A stretch of 5,500 bases of DNA from Candidatus Altarchaeum sp. (lineage in GTDB: Archaea > Altiarchaeota > Altiarchaeia > Altiarchaeales > Altiarchaeaceae). The notes under the pieces are model-generated. The model did no database searches, had not been told where the DNA came from, and was given only the letters and a program-made list of their open reading frames with translations. Both the position numbers and the translations under genes were made by a program. Of the stretch, positions 126 through 5,417 are shown piece after piece. The DNA is taken from the NCBI GenBank assembly GCA_018260755.1, contig JAGTWP010000076.1, forward strand, positions 1-5,500. The letters run 5' to 3'. Position 1 is the first letter of the stretch; the number at the start of each line of letters is the position of its first letter.

Positions 126-902
126 TCATTGGCCATCAATAAATTTGAAGGTATTTATGCTGTGATTAAACTCATTAATGCTTAAATTGAAATATTTGGT
201 TAAGGATGTATAAGAAAGAGAATAAAAATACTCTCCTTTTTTAGCGATTATATTTATCTGTTTTAAACTATCGTTGCCATATGGGTGAGTGGATACTATT
301 TTTTCAGCTAATATGCCTCCAAGCGTTGTATTTTCGTAGGATATTTCCTTTATTTCTCTTCTTTTTGCAATTTCAAGACCTATCTTATGAATTGTTTGAT
401 TTGCATCAGATGGAAGCACATTGACACTAACAATATTAAACCAAGCACTTGTGTTTTTTTTGCCCCTAAATGCTATTCCGTTGTTGTACTTAAGGATTGT
501 CCATTCCATTGGAATTTCTACGGAAAAATTTAATAAATGGTTAGGATATAACAAATGGTTTGGAGAATAATTCGGAATAAAGCAGATTGTATAATTGCAT
601 GTAAGATTTCCCGTACATCCGCAATCTTCACAACAAGTTTCTTCGTTTTCATTATTTTCACGATTGCAGATGCCGTCACCACAGTATCCTTTACTTATAA
701 TTTCTTGATACTTGGAGGTATTGTTTTTATCCTGTAAGAAATTTAATGTATTTGACAAATTACTTACATTTTCTTTAGCATTTAACTTACTTTTTATATT
801 CTCCTGCAAGTTATTTGTATTTAAAAATAGAATAACTGCACCTATTGCTCCAATTAATACTAAAAATACTCCTATCTTTAATATAGATTTATGGTTTTTC
901 AT
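126..902 (-). CDS. P: membrane-anchored protein with a Cys-rich CGDGIC motif and a PsbP-like domain
   Basis: The 258-residue product is predicted to be exported and held by an N-terminal membrane segment (residues 8-28, after a short KNHK-type positive end). A low-complexity Asn/Lys linker (30-70) follows. Next is a Cys cluster, CGDGICNRENN...CCEDCGC (74-96), with further Cys at 102 and 107. The motif is of the CGDGxCN...E..C..DCG type that recurs in archaeal surface proteins. Residues about 122-256 look like a PsbP-type fold: FSVEIPMEW at its start, a central LGGILAEK, then GEYFYSLSY and a closing FNHSINTFKFID. PsbP-like is my pattern-level assignment. About a dozen N-x-S/T sites suit an extracellular glycoprotein. 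The start overlaps the end of the upstream L1 gene by 14 nt, so the two are probably co-transcribed and translationally coupled. The ligand or role is unknown. Confidence 0.82.
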   Translation of the reverse strand: MKNHKSILKIGVFLVLIGAIGAVILFLNTNNLQENIKSKLNAKENVSNLSNTLNFLQDKNNTSKYQEIISKGYCGDGICNRENNENEETCCEDCGCTGNLTCNYTICFIPNYSPNHLLYPNHLLNFSVEIPMEWTILKYNNGIAFRGKKNTSAWFNIVSVNVLPSDANQTIHKIGLEIAKRREIKEISYENTTLGGILAEKIVSTHPYGNDSLKQINIIAKKGEYFYSLSYTSLTKYFNLSINEFNHSINTFKFIDGQ

Positions 903-1782
903 AGTTTTTCAATTCAATCATTTCGGTTAAAACACCATCTTCTCTTTTCTCCATCTTTATAAGTATCCTCTTCTTAATATCTATCCAATAAGTAATAATC
1001 TCCCCAGAAATTTGTTTTCCTTCACTATACACGGTTTCGGTCTTAGAAATACTTATAACCTTAAAACAATCTATTCCATTTATTTTTTCAATATCTGCTA
1101 CTGTCCACTCCTGTTCATTTATCAATATGCCTGACCCATCCTTTTCGAAACCTGAGATATTAGATTTTTCGAGCCATTTTACTCCTTTATCTATATATAA
1201 CATCCACTTTGCAAACATTCCTTTCAAAACTGGACAAGTATGTTGTATATTCACTTCAAGTACTTCCCCATTTTCTTCATTTACGCCAATTATATCTCCT
1301 TCGAATATACCTGGGGGTTCACCCCTTATTTTTTTCCACACACCATTTTCACCTTTTTTTAAAATATACAAATAAACAGAAACTTCTTGTGATTTTAAGA
1401 TGTAGTAATTACTCTTATTTATTACATCTATTTTCATTACCTCTATGGTAGTATTATACTCCATTGGAACTTGGATGTTATTTTCATCACCTGGCATTTC
1501 CTCCCACCAATGATAAAAATATTTCTCACCTATTTTGAATTGTGGATCTGCTGTTCTATTAAGTTCTCTAAAAGTGGAATAATATGTTTCCCCTTGTTTA
1601 GTAGTATTTTCAATGTATACTGGTTCAACATATACATGGCTAAAATTTGTGATATTTTCATCACCTATTTTTTGTTTATTATTTTTATCATTGTTGTAAT
1701 CCAAGACAATAAATCCTCCGATAATTACCAATACTATTACTCCTATAATTGCCCCTATGTATATAATATTTTTATGTGTCAT
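889..1782 (-). CDS. L1: membrane-anchored surface protein, paralogue of the lipoprotein at 3535-4467
   Basis: The 297-residue protein has an N-terminal membrane anchor (residues 7-27) and an outside domain (about 50-297). It is clearly related to L2. Shared blocks in order are YVEP/YIEP, TADPQFKIGEKYFYH / TAEPYQFKVGETYIYH, INKSNYYILKSQEVSV / INKSEYWILKAEQVNV, KWMLYIDKGVK / EWALYLNEDVK, EKINGIDCFKV / EKINNKDCFKV and a terminal YWID...IELK. The F-x-[IV]-G-E-x-Y-x-Y opening and the alternating beta pattern recall LolA/DUF3108-like half-barrel lipoprotein domains, but I do not firmly recognise the family. Unlike L2 there is no lipobox Cys, so a transmembrane anchor replaces the lipid. The ATG at 1782 has no Shine-Dalgarno and a TATA-like box about 23 bp upstream. 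It overlaps and precedes the PsbP-like gene, suggesting a two-gene unit. Confidence 0.85.
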   Translation of the reverse strand: MTHKNIIYIGAIIGVIVLVIIGGFIVLDYNNDKNNKQKIGDENITNFSHVYVEPVYIENTTKQGETYYSTFRELNRTADPQFKIGEKYFYHWWEEMPGDENNIQVPMEYNTTIEVMKIDVINKSNYYILKSQEVSVYLYILKKGENGVWKKIRGEPPGIFEGDIIGVNEENGEVLEVNIQHTCPVLKGMFAKWMLYIDKGVKWLEKSNISGFEKDGSGILINEQEWTVADIEKINGIDCFKVISISKTETVYSEGKQISGEIITYWIDIKKRILIKMEKREDGVLTEMIELKNYEKP

Positions 1783-2177: not shown

Positions 2178-2504
2178 TTAACAACACCACTTTTGTATGG
2201 TTGCAGAACTTGAATAAGATGTCACCCATAGTTGCTCAGCGTCGGCCCAACAATCTACACTACCTGTGCTGTAAGACCAACCATTGCCCATTTGTCCATT
2301 AGCATACCCATCATAGAAGCCACAGATATTTGATAAATAACACTTAGCAGTATTGCCATTACCATATACTGTTTTTTCACTTATGCCACCCCCTGCGTTT
2401 ATCTTGCAATGTGCCATTTCTGCTACCGCTACTGAACTTATCATCATCCCTATCATTGCTATTCCTACCAACATTACCAATATCCCTATTTTTAATTTAT
2501 CCAT
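2178..2504 (-). CDS. S2: small secreted Cys-containing protein
   Basis: The product has 108 residues: a signal peptide (1 to about 28; core GILVMLVGIAMIGMMISSV, likely cleavage after AVA) and a mature part of about 80 residues rich in Gly, Ser, Asn, Trp and Tyr. Six mature Cys (AHC, AKC, NIC, VDC and a terminal WCC) suggest up to three disulfides outside the cell. The leader is almost identical to that of S1 (4561-4899): 21 consecutive nucleotides match (2467-2487 and 4865-4885), while the mature parts hardly align. Gene-specific cargo behind a constant leader is typical of secreted effector or peptide families, but nothing here proves an activity. The ATG lies 3 nt after the stop of a 39-codon ORF and has no Shine-Dalgarno of its own, so coupling is possible. 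A terminator follows. Function unknown. Confidence 0.8.
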   Translation of the reverse strand: MDKLKIGILVMLVGIAMIGMMISSVAVAEMAHCKINAGGGISEKTVYGNGNTAKCYLSNICGFYDGYANGQMGNGWSYSTGSVDCWADAEQLWVTSYSSSATIQKWCC

Positions 2505-2507
2505 TGC

Positions 2508-2627
2508 TCATATTTTAAATTTTTCAATATTTGGCTTTACCCGCCACGGTGGCATTCGCCGCCACGCTGCCCTATTTGCCTCCTTCTCCGTCATCGGCCA
2601 TACATCCTTTTTCAGGATGCGTCTCAT
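2508..2627 (-). CDS. Small GC-rich ORF (39 aa) or structured leader upstream of S2
   Basis: An ATG-to-TGA reading frame encodes a very basic, Trp-rich peptide: it begins MRRILKKDVWPMTEKEANRA, continues AWRRMPPWRVKP and ends IEKFKI. The stop is 3 nt before the S2 start. By hand count the stretch 2531-2627 is about 57% GC (2541-2600 about 67%) in a window near 30%, and it uses CGC, CGG and CGA codons that its neighbours avoid. It also folds on the minus strand: GCATCC/GGATGT, GTGGC/GCCAC and TGGC/GCCA hairpins in series, with CGTGGCGG occurring twice. A foreign mini-gene, a leader peptide or a structured RNA are all possible. Its first 56 nt overlap the end of the 138-codon frame at 2572-2988. 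No equivalent precedes S1. Confidence 0.4.
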   Translation of the reverse strand: MRRILKKDVWPMTEKEANRAAWRRMPPWRVKPNIEKFKI

Positions 2628-2988
2628 CAGGTTTTAATGAGTGTAAAAAAGGTGATGAAAGCATAAAAGAAATTGTATTTGTATATTTTCTATTGACTTC
2701 TCGTTTTAGAGGTTTTGTATTAATTACTTTCCATCCTTTAGAAACAAAAAATTGTAAATAATTTATCGTCTTGTTATTAAAAGAGGGCTTTGTTGATCTT
2801 AACACTATGATGTTAGGATTTTTCTTTTCCACAATTCTTTTTATCATATCTAAATTGTGCTCGTCTCTTATCTTTATATTTACAATTGGTGCCCAAGTAT
2901 TTTCTTTTTGAGAATTAGAAATTCTTGCAATATCAATATTATTTTTGTTTTGGAATTCACCTCTCCTCAAATGAGATTTTGAAATCAT
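2572..2988 (-). CDS. M: small alpha/beta protein resembling the C-terminal half of a FkbM-type methyltransferase
   Basis: The frame has 138 codons. Residues about 34-112 alternate as strand IVNIKI, helix LDMIKRIVEKKNP, strand NIIVLRS, helix KTINYLQFFVSKGW, strand KVINTKPL and strand NTISFML. This is the order of the C-terminal half of a class I methyltransferase. The KI-x-I...NPxIIVLxS spacing recalls the FkbM family, but the acidic KID residue is absent and there is no SAM-binding N-terminal half. Catalysis is therefore unlikely and the label is weak. It aligns without gaps to psiM (5154-5417), where the relative begins with Met at the position of Trp32. Residues 1-31 here may therefore not be native. 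The last 20 or so residues run into the GC-rich 39-codon ORF and have a different composition, so the true end is doubtful. A TATA-like box lies at about 3056-3070. Confidence 0.55.
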   Translation of the reverse strand: MISKSHLRRGEFQNKNNIDIARISNSQKENTWAPIVNIKIRDEHNLDMIKRIVEKKNPNIIVLRSTKPSFNNKTINYLQFFVSKGWKVINTKPLKREVNRKYTNTISFMLSSPFLHSLKPDETHPEKGCMADDGEGGK

Positions 2989-4560: not shown

Positions 4561-4899
4561 TCACATGCAACCTACTTTGGCATATACAAAGTTATATCCT
4601 CCTGAAGATGCTAATGCCTTGAAACTTTTTCCTGAAACACAACACATTCCGTAATTTGATGCTGACTGTTGATGTCCAGATCCATCTATTGCATTTGCAT
4701 TACCACTTCCTTCTGATCCTTGATTACAAGTCATAGTAACATAATATTGTGGAGAGAAGGTTAGTTGGCCAGTACAATGTGAAGTATTGGGATAATTTTG
4801 TGTGTGAACATATACATAATTAGCACCCACCGAACTCACTATCATCCCAAGGATTGCTATTACAACCAACATTACCAATATCCCTGTTTTTAAATCCAT
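4561..4899 (-). CDS. S1: small secreted Cys-containing protein
   Basis: The product has 112 residues: a signal peptide (1 to about 26; GILVMLVVIAILGMIVSSV, likely cleavage after VGA) and a mature part rich in Ser, Gly, Asn, Gln and Tyr. The mature part has five Cys (SHC, MTC, MCC and a terminal GCM). The leader matches S2 almost residue for residue. The bases just upstream of the ATG (AAAAATTTAAA-x-AT) are also shared. Beyond the leader only faint similarity remains. It is exported and probably disulfide-bonded; whether it is a toxin-like peptide, an adhesin or a matrix component cannot be told. A strong TATA box lies about 105 bp upstream, and a palindrome with direct repeats lies about 70 bp beyond that, so this gene looks regulated. 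L2 follows. Confidence 0.8.
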   Translation of the reverse strand: MDLKTGILVMLVVIAILGMIVSSVGANYVYVHTQNYPNTSHCTGQLTFSPQYYVTMTCNQGSEGSGNANAIDGSGHQQSASNYGMCCVSGKSFKALASSGGYNFVYAKVGCM

Positions 4900-4929
4900 T
4901 TTGTGTTTTATGTTTAAATTTTTTTATTT

Positions 4930-4980
4930 AATTTTCCCATTTCAGGGACCATTGTCATTCAGAGAATGCTTCTTGAATCT
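4930..4980 (-). other. Leader with hairpins upstream of S1
   Basis: Between the TATA box and S1 the minus strand holds a less AT-rich segment with GAATGC...GCATTC (6-bp stem, 15-nt loop) and TCCC...GGGA (4-bp stem) hairpins. Only very short frames (12-15 codons) are present, with no relative of the GC-rich 39-codon ORF that precedes S2. Confidence 0.3.
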
Positions 4981-4997
4981 ATGTGCATTCCTGTCAT

Positions 4998-5013
4998 TTT
5001 ATATATTATAAAT
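4998..5013 (-). promoter_or_regulatory. TATA box of the S1 promoter
   Basis: The minus strand reads TTTATAATATATAAAA, the best archaeal TATA-box match in the window. Transcription would start near 4975, giving S1 a leader of about 75 nt. The palindrome/direct-repeat cluster at 5073-5100 is upstream of it. Confidence 0.5.
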
Positions 5014-5072
5014 ATGATGAAAAAGCATAAATATTAGCAATGAAAAGCTTTTTACAAAGGCATGAAAAAGGT

Positions 5073-5100
5073 TGAAAACGTTTTCACGGTTTTTCACGGT
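5073..5100. promoter_or_regulatory. Palindrome plus tandem 10-mers, candidate operator
   Basis: TGAAAACGTTTTCA (5073-5086) is a perfect 14-bp palindrome. It overlaps two perfect tandem copies of TTTTCACGGT (5081-5090 and 5091-5100). Several TGAAAA half-sites spaced about one helical turn apart, 60-90 bp upstream of the S1 TATA box, suit an activator or repressor site. The regulator is not known. Confidence 0.45.
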
Positions 5101-5153
5101 GCGTAAAAATTCCAAAAAAATAAAATAGTTTTTTGTTTTGATTTGTTTCGTTT

Positions 5154-5417
5154 TCATTTTTTGTAACTATTTTTTGGCTTTGTTATCATAAATTGTAACA
5201 AATTATTCTCATAATTTTCTTTTCTATCGCTATACTTTACCTTGACTGGATTGAATCCTTTTTTGATTAATTCCTGTGTAATTCTACCTGTTTTTGTATT
5301 GTATTCAAATTTTAAACTTTCCAACGCTAAAATTTCAAATCTTTCGTTTTCTATCTTTGCCTGTATATCCTTTACTTCTATATTATATCAAATTTGTATC
5401 TTTAAAATTGCTGGCAT
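5154..5417 (-). pseudogene. psiM: M relative interrupted by an in-frame TGA
   Basis: From the ATG at 5415-5417 the frame reads MPAILKIQI, then TGA (5388-5390), then 77 more codons to a TGA at 5154-5156. It aligns without gaps to M (2572-2988): MPAILKIQI with WAPIVNIKI, the TGA with Arg41 (AGA in M, so one substitution), ILALESLKFEYNTKT with IIVLRSTKPSFNNKT, ITQELIKKGF with YLQFFVSKGW and FMITKP with FMLSSP. It therefore shows the same C-terminal methyltransferase-like alpha/beta pattern. It starts 24 bp after L3 and ends about 255 bp before S1. TGA-encoded selenocysteine is unlikely because the aligned residue is Arg. Confidence 0.55.

What the first reader, a model, noticed from the sequence alone, without database searches (positions are those of the whole stretch)
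2508..2627. GC-rich island with a 39-codon basic, Trp-rich ORF 3 nt before S2
About 97 bp at 57% GC (core about 67%) in a window near 30% GC carries a clean ATG-TGA frame ending 3 nt from the S2 start. The frame uses CGN arginine codons unlike its neighbours. The same DNA forms three consecutive hairpins and repeats CGTGGCGG. In AT-rich thermophilic archaea, GC-rich islands often mark structured RNA, so this is either a mini-protein gene, a leader peptide or a new RNA motif.
Basis: partly seen in the sequence, partly recalled or inferred. Interest (0 to 1): 0.6.

Follow-up and report, generated by a model that had tools for sequence, protein, structure and literature searches.

The report
GC-rich junction after Alba-like gene
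The GC-rich patch is not a separate mini-gene: half of it codes for the acidic tail of a predicted nucleic-acid-binding (Alba/IF3-C-like) protein, and half is a short GC-rich spacer before a secreted-protein gene, a place where related genome copies often carry previously unlisted structured elements.

Summary
The island is real (97 bp, 57% GC, 40-nt core 70% in a 29% GC contig) and unique in the genome and its relatives. The 39-codon ORF exists, but the evidence is against it being a gene. It overlaps, out of frame, the last 18 codons of a better-supported gene, ORF 2572-2988(-). In that gene's frame the island's first 60 bp show native codon phase (GC1/2/3 0.70/0.45/0.30) and near-native codon use; in the 39-codon frame both look foreign. 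ORF 2572-2988 belongs to a family with 10 copies in 3 genomes and a predicted Alba/IF3-C fold. The island encodes its acidic, disordered tail. The remaining 42 bp (2530-2571) are non-coding, carry a GTGGC/GCCAC dyad, and have no homologue. In all 10 loci the Alba-like gene is followed by a spacer and then a gene with a signal-peptide-like N-terminus. Seven spacers carry recurrent elements: A (P1 hairpin with compensatory changes; 6 firm genus-wide copies plus one marginal), B (in two families) or C. None matches Rfam. The island matches neither A nor B. Best reading: gene tail plus a locus-specific cis element in a recurring Alba-like gene / structured spacer / secreted-protein cassette. Regulation by the Alba-like protein is inferred, not shown.

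The parts
2572..2988 (-). ORF 138 aa, predicted Alba/IF3-C-like nucleic-acid-binding protein; its 3' end makes up the first half of the island
   Evidence: Family of 10 loci in 3 genomes; AF2 beta-alpha-beta-alpha-beta-beta domain 33-112; PDB matches led by Alba and Alba/IF3-C on the isolated domain; domain pI 10.6
2575..2634 (-). 5' half of the island = C-terminal acidic tail KPDETHPEKGCMADDGEGGK
   Evidence: GC by codon position 0.70/0.45/0.30 (P 0.009 for GC1-GC3); codon usage near native; tail pI 4.6; pLDDT <50; acidic or E-rich C-termini also in G003:C80, G003:C84, G026:C225
2530..2571 (-). 3' half of the island = non-coding GC-rich spacer after the stop codon, up to 70% GC
   Evidence: Codon usage foreign in the frames scored; no homologue; GC level otherwise seen outside ORFs only in tRNA/rRNA
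2543..2565 (-). Dyad/hairpin GTGGC(2565-2561)...GCCAC(2553-2549) and palindrome GCCACCGTGGC (2553-2543)
   Evidence: Sequence; folding no better than shuffles
2526..2532 (-). TATA-like AAATATT about 25 nt upstream of the S2 ATG; AAAGCCAAATA (2538-2528) is shared with the G003:C44 spacer
   Evidence: Reading of the sequence; similarity P 0.008-0.012; promoter role is inference
2508..2627 (-).
2178..2504 (-). S2: small secreted protein with signal-peptide-like N-terminus
   Evidence: paralogues in G000, G001 and G003
4923..4995 (-). Element A, structured spacer element before the next secreted-protein gene (4561-4899)
   Evidence: CM R1 81.7 bits; covariation in P1; 6 firm copies in the genus; no Rfam match
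5154..5324 (-). Second, apparently N-terminally decayed copy of the Alba-like family, upstream of element A
   Evidence: Profile match 5142-5417 with 2 TGA inside, the 3' one being the ORF's stop; alignment

Best explanation
The island is a composite junction. Its first 60 bp are the 3' end of ORF 2572-2988, which encodes a basic Alba/IF3-C-like nucleic-acid-binding domain followed by an acidic disordered tail; GC is high there because of the amino acids used (D, E, G, P), not because the DNA is foreign. The next 42 bp after the stop codon are a non-coding GC-rich spacer with a dyad, directly upstream of a TATA-like box and the secreted-protein gene S2. This lineage carries a recurring cassette: Alba-like gene, structured spacer element, secreted-protein gene. 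The island's 3' half is most likely the locus-specific version of that spacer. It would act as a cis element (hairpin at the 3' end of the Alba-like transcript, or an operator next to the S2 promoter) that couples the two genes, possibly by binding the adjacent Alba-like protein. Shown: anatomy, codon-phase asymmetry, linkage in 10 of 10 loci, covariation in element A. Predicted: Alba fold. Inferred: function as a cis element, and protein binding.
For: Codon phase and codon usage separate the frames. Family, fold and disordered tail. Basic domains throughout (pI 9.4-10.6) and acidic tail. All 10 Alba-like loci are followed on the same strand by a spacer and a protein with a strongly hydrophobic N-terminus (nine of them scored, the tenth, G003:C44, cut by its contig end but with the same N-terminus), against 11% of background ORFs. 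Spacer elements: A in 4 loci plus a marginal fifth, B in 2 loci across two families, C shared by G003:C80 and C79. GC as high as the post-stop segment is otherwise confined to tRNA/rRNA outside ORFs in the sampled genome.
Against: The island has no homologue, so neither its structure nor its function can be tested comparatively. Its fold energy is at the level of shuffles. It matches neither model A nor B. No sequence-level match to Alba (Pfam, NCBIfam, PDB profile search, hhalign); the fold rests on AF2 models with two sequences. Spacers are not uniformly GC-rich (maximum 40-nt GC 0.38 to 0.75). The linked loci are partly paralogous duplications, so 10 of 10 overstates independence.
Confidence: 0.55

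Rival explanations
1. The 39-codon ORF is a genuine basic, Trp-rich mini-protein or leader peptide translated just before S2.
For: Open ATG-TGA frame 3 nt before S2. Three related loci (G003:C80, G026:C225, G003:C84) also have an ATG in the same relative frame overlapping the end of the Alba-like gene, giving short ORFs (read).
Against: Foreign codon usage and GC3 0.64; 12% of shuffles give an ORF as long; the overlapping ORFs in the relatives encode unrelated peptides and one is only 7 codons; no homologue by tblastn.
Confidence: 0.08
2. The whole island is a recent insertion of foreign GC-rich DNA without function.
For: Unique in own genome and relatives; locally aberrant GC; another contig of this genome holds a GC-rich stretch beside methylase genes.
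Against: 5' half has native codon phase and near-native usage in the 138-aa frame; the C-termini of relatives align up to EKG/EEG and continue in acidic tails; no near match in plasmids, phages, E. coli or one 26-mer scan of GTDB genomes.
Confidence: 0.15
3. The island as a whole is a free-standing structured small RNA.
For: GC-rich islands in AT-rich genomes have been used to find ncRNAs (PMC3432209, PMC6429828); in this genome comparable GC outside ORFs is tRNA/rRNA.
Against: No excess folding; no Rfam match; half of it is better explained as coding.
Confidence: 0.12
4. The 3' half is a DNA operator upstream of the S2 promoter rather than an RNA element.
For: Palindrome GCCACCGTGGC plus repeated CGTGGCGG lie just upstream of a TATA-like AAATATT 25 nt before the S2 ATG.
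Against: No second copy of the site within 3 mismatches in the genome; the TATA box is weak.
Confidence: 0.2

Closest known systems
Alba / Sac10b (Sso10b, Mja10b) and the IF3-C fold
   Same: Predicted beta1-alpha1-beta2-alpha2-beta3-beta4 domain, about 80 residues, basic; that topology is the published Alba architecture and resembles IF3-C (PMC11621453)
   Different: No detectable sequence similarity; acidic tail; present as several paralogues each next to a secreted-protein gene
ncRNAs found as GC-rich islands in AT-rich genomes (Klein et al. 2002, cited in PMC3432209)
   Same: GC-rich segment in an AT-rich archaeal genome
   Different: Half of this one is coding; no conserved structure could be shown for it
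Archaeal cis-regulatory UTR elements
   Same: Elements A and B lie in spacers before genes; A has a covarying hairpin
   Different: No Rfam family matches; elements lie after an Alba-like gene and, for A, appear to end at the next gene's own promoter (inference)

Membership tests
Alba domain family | beta-alpha-beta-alpha-beta-beta fold | tested here: met
   AF2 models, modest confidence; top PDB matches Alba, Z up to 9.5; Alba and IF3-C tied at about 8 on the isolated domain
Alba domain family | Recognisable Alba sequence profile | tested here: not met
   No Alba hit in Pfam, NCBIfam or PDB profile search, none by hhalign
Alba domain family | Basic protein, dimer, binds DNA/RNA | tested here: inconclusive
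   Basic: yes, pI 9.4-10.6. Dimerisation and binding not testable here; Mth10b shows that an Alba-fold protein need not bind (PMC3097224)
DpnI (PF06044) | Pfam model above gathering score | tested here: not met
   17.7 bits against cut-off 26.7, one of 7 members
Element A (this study) | P1 hairpin, AATGAC box, CCCTGRAAYGGG, match to CM R1 | tested here: not met
   Island not listed at E <=10 with filters off
Element B (this study) | Match to CM R2 | tested here: not met
   2521-2668(-) 5.4 bits, E 1.4, at background level
Structured ncRNA of a known Rfam family | Match to a covariance model | tested here: not met
   No match at E <=1
Protein-coding small gene (39 aa) | Codon usage and conservation of the frame | tested here: not met

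The most novel reading that the evidence does not exclude
An archaeal lineage carries many copies of a cassette made of a diverged Alba-like RNA-binding protein, a structured RNA element of several unrelated types, and a secreted-protein gene; each Alba-like protein recognises the element of its own locus and controls the secreted protein. The island would be a one-of-a-kind element of this system.
Probability: 0.25. Interest if true: 0.7.

Novelty: new variant of a known kind. Interest (0 to 1): 0.42.

Why it matters
For the finding itself, it removes a spurious mini-gene and explains half of the GC anomaly as ordinary coding. The wider pattern, a sequence-diverged Alba/IF3-C-like protein repeatedly placed beside structured spacer elements and secreted-protein genes, would if confirmed give a set of natural protein-RNA pairs in which the specificity of Alba-like proteins can be tested, and supplies at least two candidate RNA motifs absent from Rfam 15.

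Tried and rejected
tRNA, Rfam. C/D box and H/ACA readings considered by eye: no complete box set. Amber read-through of TAG 2574-2572 considered: codon usage beyond the stop is foreign, so rejected. Idea that the contig end (GCCCGCCGC) is a second copy of the island: rejected, it reads as coding of a lipoprotein paralogue. Search for organism names through genome contigs found no relative, so the taxon is not named.

Full report
What is there. The window is a complete 5500-bp contig (G000:C37, 29.2% GC) of a 1.32-Mb draft archaeal genome; archaeal identity is supported by an archaeal RNase P RNA on another contig. The GC-rich island is real: 2530-2626 is 56.7% GC, its best 40-nt window 70%. 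In 292 kb of sampled sequence from this genome, runs of 65% GC or more over 40 nt outside ORFs are otherwise tRNA or on the rRNA contig. The 39-codon ORF 2627-2508(-) exists as described.

The 39-codon ORF is probably not a gene. An ATG-ORF this long appears in 12% of dinucleotide shuffles of the region. It lies on the same strand as, and out of frame with, ORF 2572-2988(-), 138 aa. In the frame of the 138-aa ORF, the first 60 bp of the island (2575-2634) have GC 0.70, 0.45, 0.30 at codon positions 1-3, the pattern of coding DNA in an AT-rich genome (GC1-GC3 contrast P 0.009), and mean log relative codon usage +0.03, against +0.17 to +0.27 for six window genes (one of them the body of this ORF). 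The 39-codon frame scores -0.45 over the GC-rich part with GC3 0.64. The island 5' half is therefore best read as the C-terminal tail KPDETHPEKGCMADDGEGGK. Beyond the stop (2574-2572) the frames scored look foreign.

What the 138-aa ORF is. A profile of it and relatives finds 10 loci in 3 of 29 genomes of the phylum, some decayed. AF2 on an alignment of two window proteins gives a beta-alpha-beta-alpha-beta-beta domain at residues 33-112 and a disordered tail at 116-138. Foldseek ranks Alba proteins first (E 1.7e-3 to 5e-3); VIA-align gives Alba in the top 17 rows, Z 9.5 to 7.6. The domain alone gives Alba and IF3-C tied near Z 8, in line with the published similarity of the two folds (PMC11621453). 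No sequence method detects Alba, and middling Z values are common, so the fold is a prediction. The proteins are basic (pI 9.4-10.6) while the island-coded tail is acidic (pI 4.6).

The neighbourhood pattern. In all 10 loci the Alba-like gene is followed on the same strand by a spacer and then a protein with a signal-peptide-like N-terminus; 11% of background ORFs have as hydrophobic an N-terminus (nine of the ten were scored, the tenth being cut by its contig end). Several spacers carry recurrent elements. Element A (window 4923-4995(-), G000:C56, G000:C22, G003:C67, plus G001:C52 and C67 whose upstream sides are cut by contig ends; marginally G003:C44) has a P1 helix with changes on both sides in 5 of 9 pairs. 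The alignment used for this had hairpin loops trimmed by hand, and only five sequences. Element B occurs at two places in G003:C84, partly in G003:C139, and before a secreted-protein gene in a genome of another family, G026:C246 (44.9 bits, E 7e-10). Element C is shared by G003:C80 and C79. None has an Rfam match. The post-stop part of the island (2530-2571) and the G026:C225 spacer are singletons at the same position. The island is not a member of A or B; its 3' edge AAAGCCAAATA and the AT-rich leader resemble the G003:C44 spacer (P 0.008-0.012), a weak link.

Likely mechanism. Most likely the post-stop segment is a cis element between the Alba-like gene and S2, either a hairpin at the 3' end of the first transcript or an operator next to the S2 promoter (TATA-like AAATATT 25 nt before the ATG). 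The adjacent Alba-like protein is the natural candidate to bind it, since Alba proteins bind DNA and RNA (PMC7498313, PMC3585288), though one family member does not (PMC3097224). Binding and regulation are inference; folding energy gives no support for the island on its own.

Limits. No second copy of the island exists in anything searched, so conservation could not be tested; assembly error at the junction cannot be excluded without reads. The taxon could not be named with these tools. The 10 loci include duplications within two genomes.

Noticed in passing
window 4923-4995 (-): Element A: hairpin with compensatory changes plus conserved AATGAC...CCCTGRAAYGGGAAAATTAAATAAA box upstream of secreted-protein genes; 6 firm copies in the genus, no Rfam match.
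   Followed up: yes
L037:2878-3022, L111:436-580, L061:1304-1376, L139:1609-1685: Element B: GCGCCGA....GGGCGC and CAAGG...ACCTTG hairpins followed by GTAAATAC, conserved between two families of the phylum, before secreted-protein genes; no Rfam match.
   Followed up: partly
window 4999-5157 (-) and L030:3110-3316: A long near-perfect hairpin (CCGTGAAAAACCGTGAAAACGTTTTCAACCTTTTTCACGG type) lies between the Alba-like gene and element A; the overlapping 52/68-aa ORFs differ mostly by amino-acid changes and look non-coding.
   Followed up: partly
L107:4284-4606 (G000:C63): A 320-bp stretch up to 72% GC between methylase genes in the same draft genome, looking like bacterial (candidate-phyla-type) intergenic DNA: possible gene transfer or chimeric contig.
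   Followed up: no
L036:2774-2820 and L034 end: Element C: 47 identical bases, with similarity running on to the gene start, before two different secreted-protein genes of G003; one copy sits at a contig end, as expected for an assembly-breaking repeat.
   Followed up: partly
window 126-1782 and L031:9248-10952: Two adjacent membrane/secreted-protein genes in the window have a paralogous pair in the same order on contig C56, so this whole neighbourhood appears duplicated within the genome.
   Followed up: no
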